In this document: piece by piece, positions 6,877-55,217 of the stretch
How the letters are laid out: each line of letters starts with the position of its first letter
Numbering within the stretch: position 1 is the first letter of the stretch
Assembly: GCA_018261755.1 (NCBI GenBank)
Contig: JAGTRJ010000005.1
Span: 1-64,000, forward strand
Length of the DNA stretch: 64,000 nt
Source: Burkholderiaceae bacterium
GTDB lineage: Bacteria; Pseudomonadota; Gammaproteobacteria; Burkholderiales; Burkholderiaceae_D
Direction: 5' to 3'
Program-made: the position numbers and the translations under genes
Notes under the pieces: generated by a model
What the model saw: the letters and a program-made list of their open reading frames with translations, nothing else
The model's database searches: none
What the model was told of the DNA's origin: nothing

Positions 6877-7798
<922 letters not shown>

Positions 7799-7805
7799 GA
7801 GGGAA

Positions 7806-7850
7806 AATAATACTCCTGGCAGGATATTGAAACTGCCTCGGAATATCACG
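7806..7850 (+). repeat. Dispersed ATACTCC/AGTAT repeat, copy 1 (short)
   Basis: Reads AATAATACTCC-tggc-AGGATATT, then AAACTGCCTCGGAATATC. It matches the copy at 55104-55179 position for position apart from one mismatch in the right arm (AGGAT for AGTAT). It begins 8 nt after the tadA stop. Confidence 0.6.
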
Positions 7851-7909
7851 CCAAGACCAGATAAAACCAGACATACCCCGTCCCTTTCCGATTATCGAGG
7901 CAACAGGCA

Positions 7910-11645: not shown

Positions 11646-13168
11646 GACGGCTCCTTCATTTCAAACCGGCCGAATGGTCGGATTGCGCCAGCGTTTCCCA
11701 GTGGTAATGCAGTGTAAAAGCCAAGGAAGCCTGCCAGACTGAAATACAGGCTGGAGGGCTGCAAGGTCGATGCCGACAGGTAAGTAGGCAGGATGCCGAC
11801 GATGGTCCACGGCTGGCGGCCGTATTCGGCCACGAACCAGCCCAGTTCGGCCGCGATCCACGGCAATGGAATGCTCAGCAGCGCCACATACAGGAACCAG
11901 CGCTGCCGCAATACCTGCTTGCGATAGAGGAAGAACAGCGCCAGCGAGAAGGTGCCAAGAAACATGAATCCCAGCCCGACCATGATGCGGAACGACCAGA
12001 ACAGCGGCCAGACTTTTGGCACCGTATCGTTCACGGCCAGCCTGATCTGTTCCGGCGTGGCGTCGATCACGCTCGGGGTGTATTTCTTCAGCAGCAGGCC
12101 ATGACCGAGGTCGTCTTTTACCCGCTCGAATTCGGCCAGCGCCTCGGGCGATTTGTCGCCTGCCTTCAAACGCGTCAGCGCCGCATACGCGACCATGCCG
12201 TTCCTGATGCGCACCTCAGTTTCTTTCTTCAGATCCTTGATGCCGGTAATCTGCTGCGTGGTCGAGCGGGTCGAGATCAGCCCGAGCACATACGGAATTT
12301 TCACCTGAAAATGCGTTTTTTCCGCCTCGTTGTCCGGCCAGCCGAAAATCGCCAGACCAGTGGGCGCCGGTTCGGTTTCCCATTCGGATTCGATCACCGC
12401 CAGCTTGACCTTGTTGACCTTGGCCGTCACCACGCCGGATTCATCGCCCAGCACCACCACGCCGATCGTGCCAGCCAACCCGAACGCGGCCGCAATCGCG
12501 AACGAACGCAGCGCGAACGCGGTATCGCGCCCCTTGAGCAGGTAATAGGCCGAAATGCCCAGCACGAACATTGCGCCGGTGACATAACTGGCGGCAACGG
12601 TATGCAGGAACTTCACCTGCCCGACCGGATTCAGAAACACTTGCCACAAATCGACCAGCTCCATCCGCATCGTGTCGTAATTGAAGGCGGCGCCGACCGG
12701 GTAAGTCATCCAGCCATTGGCGATCAGAATCCACAACGCGGACAGACTCGAACCCAGCGCCACCAGAAAAGTCACCAGCAGATGCTGTTTTTTCGATAGC
12801 CGCTGCCAGCCGAAAAAGAACAGGCCAACAAAAGTCGATTCGAGGAAGAACGCCATCATCCCTTCGATCGCCAGCGGCGCGCCGAAAATATCGCCGACAT
12901 AATGCGAGTAATACGACCAGTTGGTGCCGAACTGGAATTCGAGCGTGATGCCGGTGGTCACTCCCATCGCGAAATTGATGCCGAACAGCTTGCCCCAGAA
13001 CTGCGTCATGTCGCGATAAATCTCGTTGCCGGTCCGGACGTAGATCGCTTCCATGATCACCATCATCCACGCCAGTCCGATCGTCAGCGGCACGAACAGG
13101 AAGTGATACATCGCCGTGGCAGCGAATTGCAGCCGCGACAGGTTGACGACTTCTTCAATCGGCGCCAT
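11624..13168 (-). CDS. cydA: Cytochrome bd ubiquinol oxidase subunit I
   Basis: CydA carries the hemes and the quinol site of cytochrome bd. The 514-residue product begins MAPIEEVVNLSRLQFAATAMYHFLFVPL; His22 corresponds to the heme ligand near the N-terminus. The Q-loop side shows the invariant GRQPW motif (AEYGRQPWTIVGILPT). The conserved EFQFGTNWSYYSHYVGD and LESTFVGLFFFGW segments are present. The frame extends upstream to 13336, but the ATG at 13168 has a GGAGGA ribosome-binding site and the family N-terminus. It overlaps cydP (14 nt) and cydB (22 nt). Confidence 0.97.
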   Translation of the reverse strand: MAPIEEVVNLSRLQFAATAMYHFLFVPLTIGLAWMMVIMEAIYVRTGNEIYRDMTQFWGKLFGINFAMGVTTGITLEFQFGTNWSYYSHYVGDIFGAPLAIEGMMAFFLESTFVGLFFFGWQRLSKKQHLLVTFLVALGSSLSALWILIANGWMTYPVGAAFNYDTMRMELVDLWQVFLNPVGQVKFLHTVAASYVTGAMFVLGISAYYLLKGRDTAFALRSFAIAAAFGLAGTIGVVVLGDESGVVTAKVNKVKLAVIESEWETEPAPTGLAIFGWPDNEAEKTHFQVKIPYVLGLISTRSTTQQITGIKDLKKETEVRIRNGMVAYAALTRLKAGDKSPEALAEFERVKDDLGHGLLLKKYTPSVIDATPEQIRLAVNDTVPKVWPLFWSFRIMVGLGFMFLGTFSLALFFLYRKQVLRQRWFLYVALLSIPLPWIAAELGWFVAEYGRQPWTIVGILPTYLSASTLQPSSLYFSLAGFLGFYTALPLGNAGAIRPFGRFEMKEPSCLTTQP

Positions 13169-13647: not shown

Positions 13648-16011
13648 TCATTTGTTGTAGGCGCCGCAACCGATGATCACGTCCTCGAATTTTTCGAGAT
13701 ACATCGACTTCGGTTCCATCTGCTTCGTGACCGGATTGGTGAAGGTATAATCCTGCCAGCCCTTGCCGAACTTGTTGATGATGTCCAGCCGCTCTCGAAC
13801 ATAGAACTTGCCGGCGCCATCCTTCGCGTCGATCAAATCCTTGCCCACCATCGCCGGGAAAGCGCCGTGCGCGACATTGCGTCCATGCAGGTCATACACC
13901 ACCACATACAGATCGCGATCGGTATAGACGCCGTTCGGCTTGTTCACTTCGGCAAATGTCCGCTCACGTCCATTCTTGCGCAGTGAAACCAGCACCCTTT
14001 GCACGGCATCGAAGGCTTCGTCCTTGGTGCCATAGGCATTGGTCTTCAAGGTAAAGGAACCGACCAGCTTGACCAGTTCGGCGGCCTGCCCCTGCAGCGA
14101 TTCCGCCGCCGCAGCCGCCTGCTCGACCAGTGCCGCGTTCTGCTGTGTCACCGTATCCATCTGGGTCACCGCCTGGTTGATTTGATCGATGCCATTGCTC
14201 TGCTCGCTGCTGGCTGCGCTGATCTCGCCCATGATGTCGGTCACGCGCTTGACGCTGTTGACCACATCACCCATCGTAGCGCCCGCCTGCTCGACCAGCT
14301 TGTTGCCGACATCGACTTTCGCCACCGAATCGTCGATCAGCACCTTGATTTCCCGTGCCGCTGCAGCGCTGCGCTGCGCCAGGCTCCTGACCTCGGTCGC
14401 CACCACCGCGAATCCCCTGCCCTGCTCGCCAGCGCGCGCGGCTTCCACCGCCGCGTTCAGCGCCAGAATGTTGGTCTGGAACGCGATGCTGTCGATCACG
14501 TTGATGATGTCGGCAATCTTCTTCGACGACTCGTGAATCGCATGCATCGTTTCGACCGCCTGCGACACGACCGAACCGCTCTTGACCGCCACATCGGATG
14601 CGGCGAATGCCTGTTGGTTTGCCTGCTGCGCATTATCGGCATTCTGCCGCACGGTCGAAGTCAGTTCTTCCATTGACGATGCGGTTTCTTCCAGAGAACT
14701 GGCCTGCTGCTCGGTGCGCGACGACAGATCGTGATTGCCGGAGGAGATTTCCTGCGTGGCCGCCGCAATCGTATCGGTGGCATGGCGCACGCTCCATACC
14801 AGGTTAGCCAATCCCTGCCCGATGCCGTTGATCGCCGTCAGCAATTGCCCGACCACATCGGTGCGGTTGGTTTCGACACGGCCAGTCAAATCACCCTGCG
14901 CAATCCGCTGCGCCACTTCGGTCGCCTGCTGCAGTGGCCGGGTCAGCCGGTTGCGAATCAGCAGATGCACCAGAAACACCAGAATCGCGACGCCGACCAG
15001 CCCCACTCCGGCGAACAGATAACTGAGCTTCGTTACCTCGCCGGTAATCTCTGCGGTATATGTGCCGCCGACGACAACCCAGTTCCAGTCCTTGAAATAG
15101 CTGAACGCAATCATCCGCTCACGCGCGGAGGCGCCAGATTCTTCGCCTTTGCTGCGATAGCGCATCGAGCCATTTTTCTGGCTCAGGATTTCCTTCACAT
15201 ATTCGCGTTCATCGGCTGTTTTTTCCGCCAGCACGTTCTGCCCCTCGCGCTTGCCGTGTATGACCAGATCGCCCATGCCCTTGCCTTCCCTGGCGTCGAG
15301 CGCATAGAAGTAGCCAGTTTCTCCCACCGTCAATGCATTGATGCGATCCTTGACCGACTTGATCTCATTGGTGAAATCAATGCCTATATACAGCGCGCCG
15401 ATGATCTGGCCGCCGTCATCCTTGATCGGGTTGTACTGGGTGAAGAATTTCTTGCCAAAGAGCGTTGCCACGCCACTGTAGGACTTGCCAGCCATCAGCA
15501 GCGCATATCCGGGGTGCGCGCGGTCCAACGGCGTGCCAATCGCCCGCTCGCCCTTTTCATTCCGGAGCGAGGTGGAAACGCGAACGAAATCGTCACCCGC
15601 CCTGACGAAAACAGTAGCCGAAATACCGCTGCGCGAACTGAAGCGATCCACCACCGCGAAATCGAGATTCACTGTCGCGCCACCATTTCTAAGCGATGGC
15701 GTGGACTTGCCGGCAACATCCACCTTGCTGGATGTATCCAGCGAAAATTTGCCGGGGAAATTGCCCTCAAGAATTTTGATGGAGCGACCGGCTTCCCGCT
15801 GCAAATCGGAATTGAACACATCGAGCATGTCGATGACCGTGCGGGTTTTTACTGTCAGGTCATCAATCGCACGTTTTTCCAGCAGGCCTGAAACCGTGTA
15901 AACAACGCCCCATAACAGCAAGCCGAAAAACAGACTGATGAGGACGAATGCAATGCTTGAAATCGATGCGCGCGCGGAAAGATGGCGCAACTTCTCGGTC
16001 AGGTGATCCAT
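13648..16011 (-). CDS. Methyl-accepting chemotaxis protein with an extra C-terminal Cache-like domain
   Basis: The 787-residue chemoreceptor has a transmembrane helix (about 18-40), a large periplasmic sensor of Cache_3-Cache_2 type (about 45-330), a second helix (about 335-355), HAMP (about 355-410) and the signalling hairpin (about 420-660). The hairpin tip reads [29 protein letters not shown]. After the hairpin comes an unusual domain of about 115 residues ([15 protein letters not shown]...[20 protein letters not shown]) that looks like a single Cache domain. By topology it must be cytoplasmic. No cheW/cheA genes are nearby, so this is an orphan receptor. Confidence 0.92.
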
Positions 16012-17194: not shown

Positions 17195-17239
17195 CGCGAA
17201 GCGGGCATCAGCAACCGCATATCCACACAAATTTTGTGG

Positions 17240-17356
17240 GGGTATATAGCAAAAATCATGTGCCGGGCCACATTTTTGCTGGCTATTTTTAAATACTGGC
17301 TGGAGTATATTTTTTAGCCTTATTGACCGAAAAGTCATTTCAGTCAGTTATTTTGG
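17240..17356 (-). repeat. Dispersed ATACTCC/AGTAT repeat, copy 3 (long form)
   Basis: A 117-bp element. Its core hairpin runs GGCTA (17281) ... ATACT-ggctgg-AGTAT (17293-17308) ... TAGCC (17319). The flanks align nearly end to end with copy 4 at 26064-26179: both begin GGGTATATAGCAAAAA and end CAGTCAGTTATT or AGTCAGTTATT. It lies between the convergent YkgJ and adenosine deaminase genes, 46 nt after one stop and 33 nt after the other. Confidence 0.8.
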
Positions 17357-17389
17357 CTGCCGCAGCATACTCCAGCTTTTGCCAGCGGT

Positions 17390-18892
17390 TCATCGCCCCG
17401 GTTTTCCTCCCGCTTGCGCCATGCCCGCCATCTGGCGCTCGAATGCGGCAAAACGCTGCGCCAGTTGCGCCATCTGCGCACGTTTTTCGCCATCGGTCAG
17501 GAACGAATGGCGAATCGTGTTGTAAACCGCTTCCTTCAGTTGCGCATAGCTCGGCCGGTAGCGGCTGGCGAACAGCAGGTATTCGCGGCTCAGGCTGTTG
17601 CGCGAAACGCCGGTATCGTCGCTCGCGATGATGAACGGCACCCGCTGCTGGCGATACAGCGGCAGAGGGTGCGCTTCGCCCTGCAGGCCGAGGATGAAGG
17701 CATTGCTGCTGAGGTTGATTTCGACCGGAATCCGGCGCTCGCGCATCAGCCGCAATGTATCCAGTGCATCGGTTTCATGCGCGATGTCCGCGCCGTGGCC
17801 GATGCGATCGGCGCCGGCTATCAGCAGCGCGTCGCGGATGTGATGCCGCAGCCCTTCCGGCGGCACCATGCCCAGCGCCAGTTCACCCGCGTGCAGCGAC
17901 AGTTTCACTTGCGGATACTGCCGCTTCAGGAAACGGAACATTTTCATCTGCAGCGTGTAATCGCGCATCGCGACCGGCGAATTCTCCGCACCGACGATGT
18001 TCACGCCGACAATCCTGCCGCTTGCCTGCGCAGCGGCGAATGCCGTCGCCATCGAAGAGAAAACGCTGGCAGGTTCGCCGCCGCGGAACACGAACGCGTG
18101 CAAGCGCAGCGTGAAACGTTCGTCGTCGATGCCAGCCGCTGCCTGCTCCGCCATCTGCACATAGCGGCGGATGGCTGCCCGCGCTTGCGGATCATGCGCG
18201 ATGAAGTCGGCGTAGGCGGACAGCGCCGCCTCAACCTGCGCCTCGCCCGACGCGGCATCGAGCGCATTGATCTTCGCCGCCAGCAGCGGATTTTCCACCA
18301 CCGGCGCCATCGCAAACACCGATTCCAGGTATTGTACGTTTTCCGCCAGCGCGCGCTGCTTCAGGATTTGCAGGCCGACTGGCGATGAGAAATCCACCAG
18401 CGGAATGAAATGCTGGAAGGTATTGAAGAAATGCTGATCCGGCGGCAATTGCCGGTGACCATGGTTGCCGTAATCCTTGACCGACCAGCGCTGCAGCAAT
18501 TGCTGATAAAAAACGCCATCGTTGCGCGCCGCAGCCGCATCCACGCAGATTTTCCGCGCCGCCTTCGGCAATTCCTGCGGCTTCATTTCGACACGGAATT
18601 TCTCCGCCTTCAGCGCGGTATCGCTTTCACGGTAAATGCACCATCCGTGCTGCTGCGCCCAGTCGAGATAGTTCTCCGCATACAGCGAACCGTCGTAATG
18701 TTGATGCAAATCGCCGCCCTTGGGCATCATGTTCGTGAACAGTTCCAGCTCGGCCAGCCTGGGCAACGGCGCTGAAATCAGCGACTGGTAGTAACGAGCT
18801 GTGATGACTGCATCCCGTCCGGGATTCGCGTTGACTGGAATGGCAGCGATGAAAAACAGGCTGAACGCGATCAGCAGTGAGCGAATGTTCAT
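17390..18892 (-). CDS. Secreted adenosine deaminase-family protein
   Basis: The 500-residue product starts MNIRSLLIAFSLFFIAAIPVNA, a clear Sec signal peptide, so it is exported. The catalytic TIM-barrel motifs of adenosine deaminases are present: GGDLHQHYDGSL with His63 and His65, SLHAGE, DRIGHG and SDDTGV, carrying the zinc ligands and catalytic Glu/His/Asp. It is far longer than cytosolic Add (about 335), with extra sequence after the HxH motif, and resembles the exported ADGF-like branch. Substrate specificity cannot be read. The start at 18892 is chosen for the signal peptide; the frame is open to 18970. Confidence 0.85.
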   Translation of the reverse strand: MNIRSLLIAFSLFFIAAIPVNANPGRDAVITARYYQSLISAPLPRLAELELFTNMMPKGGDLHQHYDGSLYAENYLDWAQQHGWCIYRESDTALKAEKFRVEMKPQELPKAARKICVDAAAARNDGVFYQQLLQRWSVKDYGNHGHRQLPPDQHFFNTFQHFIPLVDFSSPVGLQILKQRALAENVQYLESVFAMAPVVENPLLAAKINALDAASGEAQVEAALSAYADFIAHDPQARAAIRRYVQMAEQAAAGIDDERFTLRLHAFVFRGGEPASVFSSMATAFAAAQASGRIVGVNIVGAENSPVAMRDYTLQMKMFRFLKRQYPQVKLSLHAGELALGMVPPEGLRHHIRDALLIAGADRIGHGADIAHETDALDTLRLMRERRIPVEINLSSNAFILGLQGEAHPLPLYRQQRVPFIIASDDTGVSRNSLSREYLLFASRYRPSYAQLKEAVYNTIRHSFLTDGEKRAQMAQLAQRFAAFERQMAGMAQAGGKPGR

Positions 18893-18974
18893 GGAATTGG
18901 CTAACAAAGGAAATGTGCCGATACATGTGGCAAACGCACGCAGTAAAACCGATCCCGAGCAAACACGCAAGCGT

Positions 18975-20297
18975 TCAGGCAGCAGCGGACATGGCTTCCA
19001 GCCCCAGATCCAGCACCCCGATTACGTGCTGCAAGGCAGTTTTGTCGCGCACGTCGATTTCGTCAGCATGCAAGGCCAGATAACGCGCAATATCGCGCAA
19101 ACGCCATTCGAATTCCTTGGAGGCGACAGCCGCCTCGAACAGAATTTCCGTATTGTTCGCCTCCAGCAGCCTCGCATTGGCCTCGATGCAGGCATACAGC
19201 CCTGTGCTCCTGAATGCGCGCCGAATGATGATTATCTGATTCATCGAACGTTGCAGCATATCCTTGGCCCGCGCCGTTTTCAGTTCAGAGCCGTCAAGCA
19301 GTTTTTGCGTTTCAAGGATGGCCGATGCAATTCGCGCATCAATGCGTTGCACCATATCACGCGCGCGCTCAGCCGGAATGGATTCCACATTCCTGCGCCC
19401 AGATGCACCTGTTGCGCGCAAGGTGCTAGAAATGGCAGACACCAATTCTCCGCTATGTTCGCCCGGCACAACCTTCAGCGCCAGTTCGGCCCGTTCAAGC
19501 GGCCGATCCTCATCGGTCAGAACGCCTGACACCATCTCGGCTACCGATACGACCTGACCGACAATGCTGATGTTTTTCCCTGACAGCTGGCGCGGATAAC
19601 CTGCACCGTCAAAGCGTTCGTGGTGTTCGGATACCGCCTGCGCCACGCCAGGCGGAAAATTGTCCAGCTGCCTGATAAGCAACTGGCCGACTCTCGGATG
19701 GACGACAATATGGCGCCATTCATGCGGCAGCAAATGCCTTTTCCGGTCAAGATACACCGGATCGATATACAGTTCACCGATGTCGTGAAACAAGCCCGCG
19801 AGCGCGGCGCACATCTGCTCATTTTCACCGAGTCCGATTTGCTTGGCCAGACAAATCGACACCAGACTGACCATGACACTATGCGCTGACGCCGTATTGC
19901 CACCGCGCTCGGCGATGGTCAGCATGGTGCGCATCGCGCTGCCAAAGTGCGCCCCGGACAAAACACTGAAAGGACAGGAACCACCACCCGAACCAGCCAC
20001 ATGCAGCAGACGCGCTACCGGTTCAAGTCTTTCCGAAATCTGCCTGGCTTCCGAAACGACGATACCAACATCGACCCCACCCTGCACGGCAATGCTCGCT
20101 TCAAGTGGCTTGCTGAGCTTGTGCAGCGCCAGTTTCTCCTGCACATCCCTGGATATCTTCGCCCCCTTGGCAATCAGCTTCATCTTGTGGGCGCTGAAAA
20201 TATCCTCGATGGCCAAAACCTCGGCTGTTTCAGCCAGATTCATGACCTTTTCCAGATAGTTCCGGTTAACGGAACCTACCATGTTTTCCTCAGACAT
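18975..20297 (-). CDS. HD-GYP domain protein (probable c-di-GMP phosphodiesterase)
   Basis: The 440-residue protein has an N-terminal region without a known motif (about 1-120) and an HD-GYP domain (about 130-290). Motifs are ASAHSVMV, LFHDIGELYIDP (HD pair), HPRVGQLLIRQ and EHHERFDGAGYP, that is HHExxDGxGYP intact. HD-GYP enzymes hydrolyse c-di-GMP to GMP with a di- or trinuclear metal centre. The C-terminal 150 residues are helical and unassigned. No membrane segment is seen. An internal ATG at 20282 (MVGSVNRNYLEK) has a better spaced AGGAAAAC and may be the true start. Confidence 0.88.
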   Translation of the reverse strand: MSEENMVGSVNRNYLEKVMNLAETAEVLAIEDIFSAHKMKLIAKGAKISRDVQEKLALHKLSKPLEASIAVQGGVDVGIVVSEARQISERLEPVARLLHVAGSGGGSCPFSVLSGAHFGSAMRTMLTIAERGGNTASAHSVMVSLVSICLAKQIGLGENEQMCAALAGLFHDIGELYIDPVYLDRKRHLLPHEWRHIVVHPRVGQLLIRQLDNFPPGVAQAVSEHHERFDGAGYPRQLSGKNISIVGQVVSVAEMVSGVLTDEDRPLERAELALKVVPGEHSGELVSAISSTLRATGASGRRNVESIPAERARDMVQRIDARIASAILETQKLLDGSELKTARAKDMLQRSMNQIIIIRRAFRSTGLYACIEANARLLEANNTEILFEAAVASKEFEWRLRDIARYLALHADEIDVRDKTALQHVIGVLDLGLEAMSAAA

Positions 20298-20716
20298 AAT
20301 GCGTATGAAAAAATTGAGGCTTGTTCATGTTATTCATTCCGCTGGCATACCCGCCTGCCGGCGAATCTCGGCCACCCAATTTCACGCTGCATTTTGAAAC
20401 ATCTATGCCAGCCGTAGCCTGGACAACTACCATCAGGCCGCATTATTGCTATGCACAGGCCAGCACAAATGTTTCCCAAGATAAACACTATTTGATTTCA
20501 TGCATTGAATCCAGCAAAAAATTCAACCCGTTGCGAAAATGTCACGTCGATTCCAAAACGCATCAGGCTGACATGAAAGGAAGCAAAAAATGGCTGAAAT
20601 TCAACAAGGAGGACGGCCTGAAGGAGTAACGGCCGCCAGAATATGACATGCGCGTTTTTCGCAGCAATTGTCGGCATTCTTGATACGCCATTTGCCACGC
20701 CACCATGCTTGCTACG
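20298..20716. other. Intergenic region between HD-GYP and PhnD-PAS-GGDEF genes
   Basis: A 419-nt gap between two minus-strand genes. A plus-strand frame of 102 codons (20321-20629) is open but has odd composition, no family signature and no clear ribosome-binding site at its first ATG, so it is not called. No hairpin terminator or repeat copy was recognised. Confidence 0.4.
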
Positions 20717-23464
20717 TTAATCGTGCTCCACCCGGTTGCGGCCGCTTTCCTTCGCCCGGTACAACGCCGTGTCCGCACGCGCCAGCGCGACATCAATGGT
20801 GACATCGACATTTTTCACCGCCGTCACGCCAAAGCTGGCGGTATAGGAAATAGCCGCCTGTTCAATCGCGACCGGGGAATTCGCCACCGTTTCGCGCAAG
20901 CGTTCGGCAAACAGCAGCGCCTGTTCGGCAGTCGTTTCCGGCAACAGGACCGCGAATTCCTCGCCCCCGATCCGACCGCAATAATCGCTGCGCCGCAGCG
21001 TTTTCGACACCGTTTCGGTCAAATGCTGCAAAACCTGATCGCCGATCGCATGGCCGTAGGTATCGTTGATGCGCTTGAAGTAATCGATGTCAAACATAAT
21101 CAATGCCGCGCCGCCAGCCTTGCCGCGCTTGATGCGCGCCAGCTCCGCTTCCGAACGTTCGAAAAATCCTCGACGATTGGGCAGCTTGGTCAGCATGTCG
21201 GTGCTGGCCTGAAAGCGCAACTCTTCCTCCAGCCGCTTGCGTTCGGAAATATCCTGCTTGATGCCGACAAAATGATGAATGCGCCCCTTGGAATCCTTGA
21301 CTGGCGCGATGATCAGTTCTTCCTCGATCAGGCAGCCATCCTTGCGGCGGTTGACGATTTCGCCGCGCCAGGATCTGCCTGTCAGCAATGTACGCCACAT
21401 ATGTTCGTAAAACGCATCATCATGCATGTCCGATTTCAGCAGCGCCGGCGTTTTGCCGATGATTTCATCCGCGCTGTAACCGGTCAATGTGCAAAATGCC
21501 GGGTTGACCCATTCGATGTTCGCATCCACGTCGGTAATCACCACCGAATTCGCGCTGGCTTCAAGCGCTGCCACCAGCAACTGGTTGCGCGCTGCCGCTT
21601 GCTGCCGCTCGCTGATATCAATGAAGCTGACGACCACGCCGGTCAATTGCTCGTTTTCCCGGATCGGCGTCACGATAACCGAAACCGGAAAGCCGCGGCC
21701 ATCCTTGTGCCAGAACCAGTCCTCGAACTGCCGCATTTGCCCATCCTGTATGCTCATGTGAACCTGACAGTCGCTGGCCGGATAGATGCTGCCATCGCGG
21801 TGGCGCGAGTGCGTCAGTTGATGCAGGTTGCTGCCCAGTGCCTCACCTTCGTCCAGGCCAAACATTTCCATCGCCCTTTGGTTCATGAAGGTGGCGCATC
21901 CGTGCAAATCCAGGCCGACAATGCCTTCTCCCAGCGCAGCCAGCACCTGGCGATGCAGTGTCGAGTCGCGCGCGAACCGGTCTTCCAGTTCCTTGCGCTC
22001 GGTGATGTCGGTCACGAAGCCGTGCCATAAAATGCTATCGTCGGCCTGTTTTTCCGGCCAGGCATTGGCTTCGCGCCAATAGGTTTTTCCATCGGCCAGA
22101 ATGACGCGATATTCGCCCTTCCACGCCTGCATGGTTTGCGCGGACTGGCGTACCCGCTGATGGAATGCAGCAACGTCATCCGGATGCAGCAGGCGAAACA
22201 TGTTTTCCGCGCTGTCGTTCAACGCCTGCGGCGTAACGCCAAACAGCTTTAGCGCCCCTTCGCTGGCATATGGATAATGCGACGTGCCATCAGAGCGCAA
22301 GTGGAACTGGTAAATCATGCCAGGCACCTGTTTTGAAAGCTGCTGCAGCCGGTCATCCCCTTCTTCTGCCAGAACCTTCATTTCATGCAAACGCCGGTTG
22401 TAGCTCGCCAACAGCAACAGCAACAACAGGATCAGCGCCACCAAAAGGCCGCCGATGACAACTTGCACGCGGTATTTTTGCCAGATGTCGCCAATGGTAA
22501 ACGCTGGCGGCGCCTCGAACGGAGGCTGGCGCAATGCGCGCAGCAACTCCACCACAGGATGGTAATCCATTGGCACGATGAAACCGTGAATGCCGATCCT
22601 CTGCGCAATAGCGCCTTCGTGCGGCAGCTTGAACAAGGCGGCCGCAATGGCGCTGGTCATTTTTTCGCTGACGTGCGGCAAAACAGCAATCGGCCATTCC
22701 GGATACAGGCGGGTTGATATCGCATACGGAAAGGCGAACGCCTGCTGGCGGTTGATGATGCGCAACTGGCCTTGCGTGAGCTTGCCTTCCTTTTGCAGTT
22801 CCTCGATCAATCCGCTGCGCACAAAGGCGGCATCGGCCGTGCCGGCCAGCAATTCGTCGACCGCATTATCGTGCGGCATGCCGGTTTCGATCAGCCGTTC
22901 CCCTTTCGGCAATGGAATGCCCGCCAGATGCAGTTCATGCGCTGCCATCAGGTAGCCGCCAAACGACTTGCTGCTGGCGGTCGCTATCCGCTTGTCGGCC
23001 AGATCGGACAACTGTCGCAAATCCTCGCGCGAGGACAGCACCGCAATCACGCCGCCGAAAGCACGCAGCGGTATCTGGTTTTCAACGTTGACCAGCGTCG
23101 CCAGCGGCGAGGTCAGGCCGTTGCGCTTGCTCATCAAAACGTAATGCGCCGGGTTAGTCAGCACGATATCGACCTGCCGCTTCGAAACTGCGTCTTCCAT
23201 TTCGGGAAAAGTCAGCGCGCGCAGATGAAAACGCTTGCCTGGAATGCTCTGGGTCAGATAGTCGATCAGCGGCCGCCACTGCGTTTCGATGACGGGTTTG
23301 GGGCGAAAAGCCAGCACGCCCAGCGTGATATCGCCCGGTTCCTCGGTAGCCGCTGGCGCTGCATGCGATATCGTCGCAAGCAGCAGACCAAGCAGCATCA
23401 GGCATTTTATTATTCGTTTCACCATCCTGCGCGCCAGACGTTCATGGCGCGGATGCGCCGACAT
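20717..23464 (-). CDS. PhnD-type periplasmic binding domain-PAS-GGDEF diguanylate cyclase
   Basis: The 915-residue protein starts with a signal/anchor (MVKRIIKCLMLLGLLLATISHAAPA, about 14-38). A PhnD-like solute-binding domain (about 45-310: ITLGVLAFRPKPVIETQWRPLIDYL, DIVLTNPAHYV) precedes a transmembrane helix (VVIGGLLVALILLLLLLLASY, about 335-355). Three PAS domains follow, then a GGDEF domain with GRIGGEEFAVLLPE and the I-site RRSD five residues before it. It should sense a small ligand in the periplasm and make c-di-GMP. No phn transport genes are nearby. The ATG at 23425 may be the true start. Confidence 0.9.
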   Translation of the reverse strand: MSAHPRHERLARRMVKRIIKCLMLLGLLLATISHAAPAATEEPGDITLGVLAFRPKPVIETQWRPLIDYLTQSIPGKRFHLRALTFPEMEDAVSKRQVDIVLTNPAHYVLMSKRNGLTSPLATLVNVENQIPLRAFGGVIAVLSSREDLRQLSDLADKRIATASSKSFGGYLMAAHELHLAGIPLPKGERLIETGMPHDNAVDELLAGTADAAFVRSGLIEELQKEGKLTQGQLRIINRQQAFAFPYAISTRLYPEWPIAVLPHVSEKMTSAIAAALFKLPHEGAIAQRIGIHGFIVPMDYHPVVELLRALRQPPFEAPPAFTIGDIWQKYRVQVVIGGLLVALILLLLLLLASYNRRLHEMKVLAEEGDDRLQQLSKQVPGMIYQFHLRSDGTSHYPYASEGALKLFGVTPQALNDSAENMFRLLHPDDVAAFHQRVRQSAQTMQAWKGEYRVILADGKTYWREANAWPEKQADDSILWHGFVTDITERKELEDRFARDSTLHRQVLAALGEGIVGLDLHGCATFMNQRAMEMFGLDEGEALGSNLHQLTHSRHRDGSIYPASDCQVHMSIQDGQMRQFEDWFWHKDGRGFPVSVIVTPIRENEQLTGVVVSFIDISERQQAAARNQLLVAALEASANSVVITDVDANIEWVNPAFCTLTGYSADEIIGKTPALLKSDMHDDAFYEHMWRTLLTGRSWRGEIVNRRKDGCLIEEELIIAPVKDSKGRIHHFVGIKQDISERKRLEEELRFQASTDMLTKLPNRRGFFERSEAELARIKRGKAGGAALIMFDIDYFKRINDTYGHAIGDQVLQHLTETVSKTLRRSDYCGRIGGEEFAVLLPETTAEQALLFAERLRETVANSPVAIEQAAISYTASFGVTAVKNVDVTIDVALARADTALYRAKESGRNRVEHD

Positions 23465-23694
23465 GTCATTCAGCTTACATAGCTTTGCTGCGCATCGCCG
23501 TGAAAACAGCAGAACTATTGCGCAATTTCAAACGAACATCGACAAACTGAACACTGATAAACGCATTTTGTTTCCACAAGCCAATTTCGTGTACAACGTT
23601 TACGGCATGACTGTTTTGCGGTAACTTGATGCTGCATACCACGCTCTGACGAAGGGCCGAATTTTTAATTTTACGAACATTCCGGAGCACCGCA

Positions 23695-24096
23695 ATGACC
23701 CATTTTGTCTGGACCAACAACCTGAACACGGGTCAGCCCTTCATTGATGAAGATCACCGCAAGCTGGTAGCGATGATCAACAGTTTCCATGACTTGATCG
23801 AGCAGGGGAAGGGGCGCGATGTAACTGGAAATGTGCTGGACAACCTGATCACCTACTACAACGTGCATTTCACGCGCGAAGAAACGGAAATGCAGCGCAT
23901 CGGCTACCCGTTGCTACAAGAACACAAGCAGGAACACGCCCGCTTCATCGCGGAAGTGACGAAACTGAAAAAAGATTTCGACAGCGGCGCCAGCATCAAT
24001 CCGACCTATATGGCGCGACTGCTGGACGACTGGCTGCGCAACCATATCGTGAAGGTGGATACCAAACTGGCGGCGGCGCTCAAGGCGGCGAAATAA
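23695..24096 (+). CDS. Bacteriohemerythrin
   Basis: The 133-residue protein is a single hemerythrin domain with all expected di-iron ligands: His21 (DEDHRKL), His58 and Glu62 (HFTREE), His77 and His81 (HKQEH), His117 and Asp122 (HIVKVD). Bacteriohemerythrins bind oxygen reversibly and may store or deliver it, or sense oxygen or NO. CCGGAG precedes the ATG. It stands alone between the divergent PhnD-GGDEF gene and the convergent rnhA. Confidence 0.95.
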   Translation: MTHFVWTNNLNTGQPFIDEDHRKLVAMINSFHDLIEQGKGRDVTGNVLDNLITYYNVHFTREETEMQRIGYPLLQEHKQEHARFIAEVTKLKKDFDSGASINPTYMARLLDDWLRNHIVKVDTKLAAALKAAK

Positions 24097-24114
24097 GTCG
24101 CCGCACGCGCGGCG
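24097..24114. terminator. Short GC hairpin between convergent genes
   Basis: CGCCGC-acgc-GCGGCG (24099-24114) fills the whole gap between the bacteriohemerythrin stop and the rnhA stop. There is no good T run, so it may be only a weak terminator or an mRNA 3'-end hairpin. Confidence 0.3.
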
Positions 24115-24552
24115 TTATCCCACCGATTCAACACCGCGGTTCGCCAGCGCATCGGCCCGCTCGTTGCCTTCATGCCCAGCATGGCCGCGAACCCAACGCC
24201 AATCGACCGCATGCCGCGCCTGTGCTTCATCCAGCGCCTGCCACAAATCGGCATTTTTCACCGGCGACTTCGAGGCGGTTTTCCAGCCACGCGCCTTCCA
24301 GCCATGAATCCACTCGGTAATGCCCTTTTGCACGTACTGGCTGTCGGTATGCAGAACCACCTCGCACGGCCGCCGCAATGCATTCAAGGCCTCGATCACC
24401 GCCGTCAGTTCCATCCGGTTGTTGGTCGTTTCCGCTTCGCCGCCAAACAATTCCTTTTCATGTCCGCCAGAAACCAGCAGCGCGCCCCAACCGCCCACGC
24501 CGGGATTGCCCTTGCACGCGCCATCGGTAAAAATTTCAACCCTGTCCATCAA
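24115..24552 (-). CDS. rnhA: Ribonuclease HI
   Basis: RNase HI cleaves the RNA strand of RNA-DNA hybrids. The 145-residue product starts [23 protein letters not shown]. The carboxylate catalytic set is visible: Asp in FTDGAC, Glu in NNRMEL, Asp in HTDSQYV and Asp in NERADALAN. The handle region KARGWKT is also present. Its start overlaps the end of the upstream methyltransferase gene by 17 nt, the common Burkholderiales methyltransferase-rnhA arrangement. Confidence 0.97.
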
Positions 24553-25321
24553 TTCCCTGCCTGTTCTTGCTGGCGACCGGAATGTTGATCACCTGCGGTT
24601 TCTTTTTGAACTTCACCGGACCAACCATCGTCATCCCGCGCACGCGCTTGACGGCCTGCAGGATATACACGCCGCCCAGCGACGGCCACCAGCGATTGCC
24701 GGCCTTTTCCATGAACGCAAAACGCCGGATGGAACTTTCGGTCATGCGCGGCGGAATATAGCAGCCAAAATGGCCGCGGTTGATTTCCAGACTCAGGAGC
24801 TTGAGCCAATCCTTGATGCGCCGCAGGCCGATCAGTTCGCCGCCTGAGGGCAGGAACGTGCCGCCAGTCAAACGGCTGGTCGCCCGCCGCAAGCCCCACA
24901 GGCTGGCCGGGTTGAAGCCGCAGATGATGACCTGCCCCTCTGGAATCAGCACCCGCGCCACTTCGCGCAACACCTGGTGCGGCTCGGCCGCGAATTCCAG
25001 CACATGCGGCAGTACCACCAGATCGAGGCTGTCGGATGCAAACGGCAAGTCGCAGAAATCGTGCAGCAGATCCGGCTTGCGAGCGCCGTTTTCCGCTGGA
25101 CCGCCCGACTCGTCCGACAGCCAGCGGTGCTGCATCCGATTGGCACGCAAGGCATCAATCTGAGGCAAGCCAACCTGCAACGCCTTGAAGCCGAAAATGT
25201 CGGCCGTCAGCGCATCCAGCCGTTCCTGTTCCCATAACCGGACATAGTTACCGAGCGGAGTACCCATCCAATCGCCCAAGGTCGCTATAATTGGCGTTTT
25301 TGATGACCGGTGTTGTTCCAT
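24536..25321 (-). CDS. Class I SAM-dependent methyltransferase
   Basis: The 261-residue frame has a Methyltransf_11-type core: [56 protein letters not shown]. The usual glycine-rich motif I is weak ([13 protein letters not shown]). Related proteins sit next to rnhA and divergent from gloB in Burkholderiales, but the substrate is unknown. If the ATG at 25321 is used, it overlaps the gloB ATG head to head (CATG, 25319-25322). A later start such as 25267 would leave room for a gloB promoter; a TATAAT at 25286-25291 points that way. Confidence 0.82.
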
Positions 25322-25994
25322 GTCTTCCGTTAAACCACTTTCCGTTCTGGCCGTTCCGATTATTGTACTGACTCATCGCCACGATGACCATATCGGCGGC
25401 GTGGCGGCACTGCTTGATCATTTTCCGGTGCCGGTATTCGGCCCGCGCAAGGAAGCCAAGCCGATCGCCACCGTCACCCGTGCCGTGTCCGAAGGCGACG
25501 AGATCACCGTTGCCGCGCTGCCGCTGCGCCTGCGAGTGATTGACACCCCCGGCCACACGATCGGCCATGTCGCCTATTACGTCGAAGCGCAGCACTGGCT
25601 GTTCTGTGGCGACACGCTGTTCGCTGGCGGTTGCGGCCGGCTGTTTGAAGGCACGCCACAACAAATGACCGAATCGCTGGCCAAATTCGCCGCGCTGCCC
25701 GACAGCACGCTGGTGTATTGCGCGCATGAATACACGATTTCGAACCTGAAATTCGCGCTGGCGGTCGAACCGGACAATGCGGCGCTGGTTGCGCGCATGA
25801 AGGATGAGCAGGCCAAACGCGAACAAGGCTTGATGACCGTGCCTTCGACCATGGCGCTGGAAAAAGCGACCAACCCGTTCCTGCGCAACACCGAACCGGC
25901 GATCATCGAACGGCTGATGGCCGATGGCCGCCTGACGCAGCGCGATCCGGTCGCCTCGTTCGCCGCCATCCGTGAATGGAAAAACAATTTCTGA
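25320..25994 (+). CDS. gloB: Hydroxyacylglutathione hydrolase (glyoxalase II), apparent internal N-terminal deletion
   Basis: Glyoxalase II hydrolyses S-lactoylglutathione to lactate and glutathione. The metal motif THRHDDH (His19, His21, Asp23, His24), [31 protein letters not shown] and the C-terminal NPFLRN segment are all present. The product is only 224 residues instead of about 255-265. The family start (LSVLAVP) runs straight into the strand before the metal motif ([11 protein letters not shown]), so some 35-40 residues are missing in frame. The lost part normally holds the first beta strands, including NDNYIW and VDPGD. Activity is therefore doubtful. Confidence 0.8.
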
Positions 25995-26063
25995 CGCGGT
26001 TGGGAAAATTCGTCCATTGGTGCTTTGCGCTGACAATTTCAAACGTTTTGCGCCAACAAGCAA

Positions 26064-26179
26064 GGGTATATAGCAAAAACACTGCTCTGGACCACATATT
26101 TGGTGGCCCTTTTAAAATACTGCCCGGAGTATATTTTTGGCCTTACTGACCAAAAATTCATTCAAGTCAGTTATTGGGG
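26064..26179 (-). repeat. Dispersed ATACTCC/AGTAT repeat, copy 4 (long form)
   Basis: A 116-bp element. Its core hairpin runs GGCC (26105) ... ATACT-gcccgg-AGTAT (26117-26132) ... GGCC (26142). It aligns with copy 3 over its whole length with few indels. It starts 70 nt after the gloB stop. Confidence 0.8.
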
Positions 26180-26221
26180 GCTTCCCGCGCCAGCCCCGCT
26201 CGCGTTTCAGCACGGATTTCC

Positions 26222-26300
26222 GTGGGGTATGCAGCAAAATAGTTCTGCTCAACCACCATTTCCAGGACTATTCAAAAATACACCCGGCAGTATATCCCCT
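26222..26300 (-). repeat. Dispersed ATACTCC/AGTAT repeat, copy 5 (diverged, tandem to copy 4)
   Basis: Begins GTGGGGTATGCAGCAAAAT, echoing GGGTATATAGCAAAAA of copies 3 and 4. It continues through AACCACCATTT to the core ATACacccggcAGTATAT (26278-26295). It is the same orientation as copy 4 and 43 bp away from it. Confidence 0.5.
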
Positions 26301-26378
26301 TGCCAGCAGACACAAAAGGCTGCCGCTGATGCCGCAGCCACAACTGCAACCAACGTTCGCGCCGACTGGAACCACTGA

Positions 26379-42980: not shown

Positions 42981-43011
42981 TTAATACCGGGTGGAGTATT
43001 TTCAAACAGCC
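42981..43011 (-). repeat. Dispersed ATACTCC/AGTAT repeat, copy 7 (short)
   Basis: On the minus strand it reads GGCTGTTTGAAAATACTCC-accc-GGTATTAA. The left arm and flank match the consensus; the right arm has GGTAT for AGTAT. It lies 45 nt after the stop of the pseudouridine synthase gene. Confidence 0.55.
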
Positions 43012-43055
43012 TCAGAAATTGGGGAAGAAGCGGTATGTTTCTACCCATACTCCCG

Positions 43056-49251: not shown

Positions 49252-49343
49252 AAAAAACAACTGACTGAAACACAACACCCAGTCAATAAGGCTAAAAAAT
49301 ATACTCCGCACAGTATTTTTTAACAGCCAGCAAAACCAAGGCC
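49252..49343 (+). repeat. Dispersed ATACTCC/AGTAT repeat, copy 8 (long form)
   Basis: Reads AACTGACTGAAA ... GTCAATAAGGCTAAAAAAT ATACTCC-gcac-AGTAT TTTTTAA, then AGCCAGCAAAA ... GGCC. It is nearly identical to the reverse complement of copy 3 across both flanks. It begins 60 nt after the DUF4431 gene. Confidence 0.8.
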
Positions 49344-49527
49344 AAACATCGCATTTTGGTCACATACACTGCAATTTTTCTCTAAAAATTGATTGATGCG
49401 CCCGAATTTCTATTCGTGCCAGCATCTTTTGGCCTTGTGCAAGCCGGCTTTCTGTTGCCGCCAAACCAGCTATGACATGTGTTCGCTCCTTTTGGCAAAA
49501 GTCATTGACTCCCCCACACATGCGCAT

Positions 49528-55103: not shown

Positions 55104-55179
55104 GGTTGGTTTTTAGGCCGCCAGCCAGCAAAAAAATACTCCACCTAGTATTAAAAATGGCCTCCGAAATATGGCATGG
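55104..55179 (+). repeat. Dispersed ATACTCC/AGTAT repeat, copy 9
   Basis: Reads GGCCGCCAGCCAGCAAAAAA then ATACTCC-acct-AGTAT (55136-55151), then TAAAAATGGCCTCCGAAATATGGC. It lies between the convergent PepSY and corA genes. Confidence 0.7.
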
Positions 55180-55217
55180 CAACATCATTTCAGACAATAC
55201 ACCCCGTTTAATCCGTT

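What the first reader, a model, noticed from the sequence alone, without database searches (positions are those of the whole stretch)
17240..26179. Long-form repeat copies align over about 116 bp at distant loci
Copies 3 (17240-17356) and 4 (26064-26179) match almost base for base from GGGTATATAGCAAAAA to GTCAGTTATT, around their hairpin core. Copy 8 (49252-49343) matches the reverse complement of copy 3 on both flanks (AACTGACTGAAA, GTCAATAAGGCTAAAAAAT, AGCCAGCAAAA). Such similarity in non-coding DNA means recent mobility or strong selection. The short copies would then be decayed remains. The GTCA/TGAC flank motifs may be part of the element ends.
Basis: seen in the sequence. Interest (0 to 1): 0.65.

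Follow-up and report, generated by a model that had tools for sequence, protein, structure and literature searches.

The report
Evenly spaced conserved intergenic DNA elements
The copies belong to a large family of 70-base DNA elements that sit between genes at fairly regular intervals of about 9,000 bases and are kept nearly unchanged in their core, so they look like working chromosome sites rather than jumping DNA.

Summary
The three copies are real, but 72-84% identical, not "almost base for base". They belong to a genome-wide family with rigid anatomy: GGRGTAT, usually 47 nt, then ATACT-N6-AGTAT, 70 bp in all; the long form adds a ~45-bp tail (TGAC...GTCAGTTATT). The own genome has 151 exact matches to this layout, the reversed control 0. 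The window's four short copies fit it with one mismatch each, so they are not decayed remains.

Recent mobility is not supported: 11 of 12 comparable long sites are occupied in both sister species. In 11 orthologous pairs the core has 5 substitutions in 384 positions against 183/760 in the rest; fourfold sites are 27% diverged. That is selection copy by copy. Long copies avoid divergent promoters and favour convergent gene pairs. Spacing is too even: CV 0.51 against 0.93 (0 of 3000 simulations), with partial support from held-out contigs and a sister genome.

Best explanation (inferred): binding sites of an unidentified protein that organises chromosome topology, working like E. coli BIMEs but without REP hallmarks. 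Main rivals: an RNA 3'-end element, or old transposon relics.

The parts
17239..17356 (+).
26063..26179 (+).
26224..26293 (+). Short 70-bp element in the same intergenic gap, same orientation, left palindrome arm ATACA; not recognisable in G001
49255..49370 (-).
7810..7879 (-). Short 70-bp element directly after the stop codon at 7798, 1 mismatch
42984..43053 (-). Short 70-bp element between tandem minus-strand genes, 1 mismatch; not in the nhmmer hit list
55136..55205 (-). Short 70-bp element between convergent genes (stop 55056 / stop 55218), 1 mismatch

Best explanation
The copies are members of a large, old, vertically inherited family of 70-bp chromosomal sites; a majority of those detected by profile in this genome are extended by a tail. 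SHOWN: rigid bipartite architecture (half-site GGRGTAT, then a 16-bp palindrome ATACT-N6-AGTAT with 5-bp arms; the two AGTAT-type half-sites are 63 bp, about 6 helical turns, apart, 62 bp in another genus); a variable-sequence hairpin at a fixed place between them; a core held by purifying selection at long-form sites; placement at gene ends and between convergent genes; over-even spacing of about 9.4 kb along the chromosome, long and short forms counting as one set. INFERRED: a sequence-specific DNA-binding protein, not identified, binds the palindrome and half-site on the same face of the helix. The occupied sites act as regularly placed topological or nucleoid-organising points (supercoil barriers, loop anchors or topoisomerase loading sites) where positive supercoils from converging transcription accumulate. 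It would work like E. coli BIMEs while being unrelated to them by sequence.
For: Spacing inside the unit: a scan of all gaps 20-99 nt in 831 kb of the own genome gives 47 nt in 47 of 52 matches (46: 3, 45: 1, 58: 1), and in 43 of 49 in the sister genome.

Selection: box A 1/55, palindrome arms 0/110, T-run 0/65, TGAC 0/44, GTCAGTTATT 4/110 substitutions, against loop 16/66, rest 183/760 and 27.4% at 12,466 fourfold sites of 63 genes. Orthologs match in the variable columns at 75.4% against 68.6% over all pairings (0 of 20,000 permutations). One site is occupied in four species of another genus.

Sequence rather than pairing is conserved in the palindrome: no compensatory change at its four predicted pairs in 89 copies, though a profile favours such copies.

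Context: 4 of 87 long elements lie between divergent and 44 between convergent genes, against 96 and 89 of 389 gaps of 130 nt or more, element-bearing gaps included; p 8e-6 and 6e-7.

Even spacing: CV 0.51 against 0.93+-0.10, 0 of 3000; four detection thresholds p 0.0025 or less; held-out contigs p=0.014, and 0.002 for close pairs; sister genome p=0.015. Long and short lie within 3 kb of each other in 8% against 22% (p=0.016).

Precedent: a review says a BIME impedes supercoil diffusion and about 600 BIMEs may bound domains (PMC6907758, passages).
Against: No binding protein was found, and no binding, topology or expression data exist.

Even spacing could also come from transposition immunity during an old spread, or from loss of close copies. 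It weakens when only exact-pattern hits are used (sampled contigs p=0.29; held-out contigs without C1 p=0.18 for CV, 0.005 for close pairs). In the sister genome it is p=0.015 for the full set and 0.03, 0.05, 0.08 and 0.34 at four rising thresholds. The long-short median distance is not significant (p=0.06).

The middle hairpin kept across genera and the conserved T-run fit an RNA element as well. Short elements in tandem gaps prefer the strand of the upstream gene (23 of 31, p=0.011), which a pure DNA site would not need.

Selection was measured on long copies only; 2 of 5 short sites are not recognisable in the sister. A relative of the same genus (G002) has none, so the sites are dispensable there.
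Confidence: 0.42

Rival explanations
1. RNA 3'-end element: the transcribed element (middle hairpin, AU-rich hairpin, U-run, tail hairpin plus UUAUUUU) terminates transcription or protects mRNA 3' ends.
For: Located after stop codons and between convergent genes. Short copies in tandem gaps follow the upstream gene's strand in 23 of 31 cases (p=0.011). The T-run after the palindrome is unchanged (0/65). The middle hairpin recurs at the same place in three groups: 73/102, 15/29 and 11/18, against shuffled 13.8, 2.3 and 1.6.
Against: The palindrome shows no compensatory changes in 89 copies, and its 5-bp AU-rich stem is weak for a terminator (judgement). Long copies show no strand preference (18 same, 21 opposite). 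An apparent lack of ordinary terminators beside elements vanished with a masking control (13/43 against 8.7/31). No Rfam match overlaps an element in the four loci scanned. RNA function would not predict even spacing.
Confidence: 0.22
2. REP/TIR-like mobile DNA spread by a RAYT/TIRYT-type tyrosine transposase, now largely static.
For: High copy number, extragenic position, palindrome and convergent/tandem placement are typical of REPs (PMC3733652). The genome has one Y1_Tnp gene. Lineage-specific presence implies an old spread.
Against: No GT[AG]G or CGTC tag beside the palindrome in the consensus. 70-118 bp instead of 20-40. A Y1_Tnp gene is present in 9 of 9 g32 genomes searched, with many or few repeats, and in G002, which has none. 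In G000 and G001 it carries a different flanking repeat and a QVH motif; in g32 carriers G254 and G489 the motif is intact (DHFH). Neutral fossils would not keep their core at each site.
Confidence: 0.18
3. Fossil non-autonomous transposon whose autonomous parent had target immunity; immunity made the spacing even, and the core is kept because copies were later co-opted locally.
For: Immunity naturally produces over-dispersion (recalled). Two carrier genera with different middles suggest separate expansions. One short site of G000 (C2:42295) has no recognisable counterpart in G001.
Against: No terminal inverted repeat across the whole unit in the consensus; target duplication could not be tested; no parent element was seen, though none was searched for beyond Y1_Tnp. 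Selection is on the whole core over 11 pairs.
Confidence: 0.12

Closest known systems
REP / BIME elements (GTAG and CGTC families; Di Nocera 2013, PMC3733652)
   Same: Many extragenic palindromic repeats, favouring convergent and tandem gene ends; proposed topological roles (BIMEs, PMC6907758 passages)
   Different: No GTAG/CGTC tag, fixed 70-bp two-part unit with a separate half-site, not immediately flanking the RAYT-like gene, core under selection copy by copy, even spacing
TIRs of TIRYT transposase genes (consensus GGGGWSAS; PMC3733652, PMC6006769)
   Same: Starts with a G-run; the genome carries a subclass 2.1-like Y1 transposase
   Different: The repeat seen beside that gene here is GGGGTCGGAGT, not GGRGTAT
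Dedicated chromosome-organisation sites such as matS/MatP (recalled, no call)
   Same: Many short sequence-specific sites for one protein, spread over the chromosome
   Different: Found in all seven large contigs examined rather than in one macrodomain; bipartite with a 62-63 bp half-site offset; protein unknown

Membership tests
REP (RAYT-associated) | GT[AG]G or CGTC tag at the foot of the hairpin | tested here: not met
   Read off the consensus of 89 long copies and of 51 copies from several genera: no such tag beside the palindrome
REP (RAYT-associated) | 20-40 bp palindromic unit | tested here: not met
   Unit is 70 bp with rigid spacing, or about 118 bp with tail
REP (RAYT-associated) | Repeats flank a tnpA-REP gene of the genome | tested here: not met
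   One Y1_Tnp gene; its immediate flanks carry GGGGTCGGAGT-type repeats; the nearest long copy is about 0.8 kb upstream, beyond an Hsp20 gene
REP (RAYT-associated) | High copy number, extragenic, at convergent/tandem gene ends | tested here: met
MITE / non-autonomous DNA transposon | Terminal inverted repeats and empty sites in relatives | tested here: not met
   No inverted termini in the consensus; 11 of 12 long sites occupied in both sisters, the twelfth in a 2.7-kb indel region; but 2 of 5 short sites have no recognisable counterpart in G001
MITE / non-autonomous DNA transposon | Target-site duplication | not tested
   No clean empty long site was found to compare
Intrinsic transcription terminator | GC-rich hairpin plus U-run, oriented with the upstream gene | tested here: inconclusive
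   T-run conserved but AU-rich stem; long copies 18 same / 21 opposite, short 23 / 8
Rfam RNA families | Covariance-model match | tested here: not met
   0 matches at gathering score in the window; none of 11 weak matches overlaps an element in the four loci scanned
Topological barrier / gyrase site (BIME-like function) | Binds gyrase or impedes supercoil diffusion | not testable with these tools
   Only indirect: placement and even spacing

The most novel reading that the evidence does not exclude
A new class of chromosome-architecture site: a 70-bp bipartite protein-binding element placed about every 9-10 kb over the chromosome at gene ends, individually maintained by selection, setting a regular lattice of loop anchors or supercoil barriers in several Burkholderiaceae lineages.
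Probability: 0.33. Interest if true: 0.9.

Novelty: new variant of a known kind. Interest (0 to 1): 0.7.

Why it matters
What bounds bacterial supercoil domains is an open question. The review seen here (PMC6907758, passages) lists the nature of supercoil diffusion barriers as unresolved and says that random placement of barriers was commonly observed. A sequence-defined, countable, evenly spaced and individually selected set of sites would make that question directly testable. It is also a counter-example to reading intergenic repeats as mobile junk: here most of the comparable copies are orthologous, old and constrained.

Tried and rejected
Recent mobility: rejected by shared long sites and by paralog divergence equal to ortholog divergence.

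RAYT as mobiliser: not linked.

Terminator replacement: at first, element-bearing convergent ends seemed to lack ordinary terminators (fraction 0.06 of 53 against 0.47 of 57 in G000; 0.23 of 47 against 0.33 of 51 in G001). With random masking of element-free gaps as control this disappeared (13/43 against 8.7/31), so the claim was dropped.

RNA covariation of the long copies: consensus energy -1.59 kcal/mol, covariation term -0.06; the top co-varying column pairs are mostly neighbouring or loop columns. Across genera the middle helix on an unguided alignment gave mixed support: covariation score above all 500 shuffles, but a slide of -1 column scored higher, and 58% of helix-1 cells are paired. 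The position-specific hairpin test was clearer.

Single folds of the window copies: the forward strands of copies 3 and 4 fold little better than shuffles (z -1.6, -0.5), while their reverse strands and both strands of copy 8 do better (z -2.2 to -4.5). I drew no conclusion from these.

Viral origin: two viral scans gave 3 and 0 hits; by eye none of the 3 has the architecture. Plasmid search: 1 weak hit covering 25% of the query. The Legionella hit is a single match without the architecture, taken as chance.

Literature: the listings of searches showed no description of these elements. That covers only the open-access library and the terms used.

Genera g1 and g32 could not be named. The names gltB and Hsp20 rest (GATase_2 and HSP20 domains) and, for gltB, on recall.

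They corrected the short-site count, the missing tail in other genera, the G489 copy (7-nt loop) and the QVH statement.
Full report
WHAT IS THERE. The window is contig C16 (1-64000) of a 2.43-Mb, 47-contig genome. They are 72-84% identical, not nearly identical. A profile from 31 copies, these three included, found 79 hits in 831 kb of this genome and 64 in 567 kb of its sister G001. Three of the 143 were dropped for starting late in the model, leaving 90 long and 50 short. The long form runs GGGGTATATaGcCAAAA...GGCCAcatTTTTGCTGGC...AAATACT-N6-AGTATATTTTT...TTACTGACC...GTCAGTTATTTTGG (alignment A1, 89 copies). In 831 kb the tail was found only in long copies apart from one weak hit. In 699 kb held from other genera no full-length tail was found.

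THE UNIT IS 70 BP WITH RIGID SPACING. Scanning all gaps from 20 to 99 nt between GGRGTAT and ATACT-N6-AGTAT gave 47 nt in 47 of 52 matches in 831 kb of the own genome and in 43 of 49 in 567 kb of G001, 46 nt in 6 of 6 in 400 kb of G254, and no match in 400 kb of G002. The whole own genome holds 151 exact matches (gap 44-50) against 0 for the reversed pattern; 100 of the 151 places were listed. The four short copies of the window fit the unit with 1 mismatch each; 20 resamplings gave no match at 2 or fewer mismatches. So these short copies are the basic unit, not remains. The AGTAT-type half-sites of box and palindrome are 63 bp apart (62 bp in genus g32), close to six helical turns (arithmetic).

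DISTRIBUTION. Of 392 family genomes, 27 have at least one match to the architecture. Many copies occur in G000 (151), G001 (131) and some species of genus g32 (67, 57, 17, 14, 9, 8 and fewer), with a few in genus g13 (8, 5, 4, 2). Single hits in genera g12, g15, g29 and g30 may be chance; I saw one hit of the reversed control. G002, of the same genus, has none. An order-level scan with a stricter pattern hit 4 of 399 genomes. A DNA search with the long consensus hit 6 of 399; by eye the three outside this family lack the architecture. The middle sequences differ between genera, but a hairpin ending 7-11 nt before ATACT recurs: 73 of 102 (g1), 15 of 29 (g32 main), 11 of 18 (others), against shuffled means of 13.8, 2.3 and 1.6; four of the 153 sequences, from single-hit genomes, were left out of that count. 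On an unguided alignment the evidence for that helix was mixed.

NOT RECENTLY MOBILE, UNDER SELECTION. Between the sampled parts of G000 and G001, 12 long sites could be compared and 11 are occupied in both; the twelfth lies in a 2.7-kb indel region. One of the 11 looked empty in one search direction but was found occupied in the other. Of 5 short sites, 3 are recognisable in both (0, 1 and 2 mismatches in the sister copy) and 2 are not recognisable in G001 at 3 or fewer mismatches. In the 11 long pairs the substitutions were: box 1/55, palindrome arms 0/110, T-run 0/65, TGAC 0/44, GTCAGTTATT 4/110 and left AT run 7/66, but loop 16/66 and rest 183/760. Fourfold sites of 63 genes are 72.6% identical. 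The "5 in 384" of the summary pools box, arms, right T-run, TGAC and GTCAGTTATT; it leaves out the left AT run. Orthologs agree better than mismatched pairs in the variable columns (0 of 20,000 permutations), so descent is vertical rather than by conversion. Ortholog and paralog identity are alike (85.1%, 84.0%), as expected for old copies with a fixed core. In genus g32, one site is occupied in G254, G489 (7-nt loop), G224 and G655, the last two about 22% diverged from G254 there.

WHERE THEY SIT. Of 87 classifiable long copies (3 more lie at contig edges), 44 are between convergent genes, 39 between tandem genes and 4 between divergent genes. Gaps of 130 nt or more, element-bearing ones included, are 89, 204 and 96 (p 6e-7 for convergent and 8e-6 for divergent). 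Of 50 short copies, 31 are tandem, 10 convergent, 6 divergent, 2 inside called genes and 1 at an edge. Genes were called with my own hexamer scorer, so starts are approximate. Short copies in tandem gaps prefer the upstream gene's strand (23 of 31); long ones do not (18 of 39).

EVEN SPACING. In 7 contigs (772 kb), 79 positions from the profile plus architecture, after merging neighbours within 500 bp, have gaps with mean 9.4 kb and CV 0.51. Random choice of weighted intergenic sites gives 0.93+-0.10 (0 of 3000), and the largest gap is 22 kb against 43 kb (p=0.0003). Four thresholds gave CV 0.50-0.58 (p 0.0025 or less). Contigs not used before, with exact hits from the 100 listed places plus one search hits, gave p=0.014, and 0.002 for close pairs. 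Without contig C1 these are 0.18 and 0.005. Exact hits alone in five sampled contigs gave 0.29; exact hits miss many copies. In G001, p=0.015, and 0.03, 0.05, 0.08 and 0.34 at rising thresholds. Long and short copies avoid each other within 3 kb (p=0.016), though their median distance is not significant (p=0.06). Contigs were chosen for size and for having hits, not for spacing.

HOW IT MOST LIKELY WORKS. The invariant palindrome without compensatory change, the half-site six turns away, the placement and the lattice-like spacing point to a DNA-binding protein using these as chromosomal anchor or barrier sites. That step is inference. The RNA rival keeps real support (T-run, middle hairpin, strand bias of short copies). 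The transposon rivals explain origin but not the upkeep of the core.

COMPARISON WITH WHAT IS KNOWN. REPs share the placement (PMC3733652: abstract and sections 15 and 16 read) but carry a GTAG/CGTC tag and are small, and RAYT-associated REPs flank their gene (PMC6006769: abstract, sections 8 and 12 and the first part of 15 read; PMC8266576: passages). These features were tested and not met. The RAYT-like gene resembles subclass 2.1 by motif and size (judged). BIMEs as supercoil barriers: PMC6907758, passages. The listings of searches showed no description of the present elements.

Noticed in passing
L129:1471-2193 (G000 C19) and L130:1471-2193 (G001 C136): A Y1 transposase gene (PF01797) has QVH in place of the HuH motif in both repeat-carrying species of this genus, while the ortholog in G002 has HFH. 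It lies between an Hsp20 gene and a gltB-like gene; the gltB-like neighbour recurs in genus g32. It may be a tamed protein without catalysis.
   Followed up: partly
window 13648-16011 (-): A 787-aa chemotaxis receptor (Cache_3-Cache_2, HAMP, MCPsignal) with an extra C-terminal Cache match; its signalling region matches many places in the sister genomes G001 and G002, so the genus has many such receptors.
   Followed up: no
window 25995-26378; G001 C14:5757-5991: A long and a short element lie side by side in one intergenic gap in the same orientation, in each genome at a different site; exceptions to the avoidance of close pairs.
   Followed up: no
G254, G224, G489 loci (L167, L191, L213 and others): In genus g32 the 6-nt palindrome loop occurs as GGGGGG or CCCCCC between the same arms, and box A occurs in some copies as ATACTCCCC, as if parts flip independently.
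   Followed up: no
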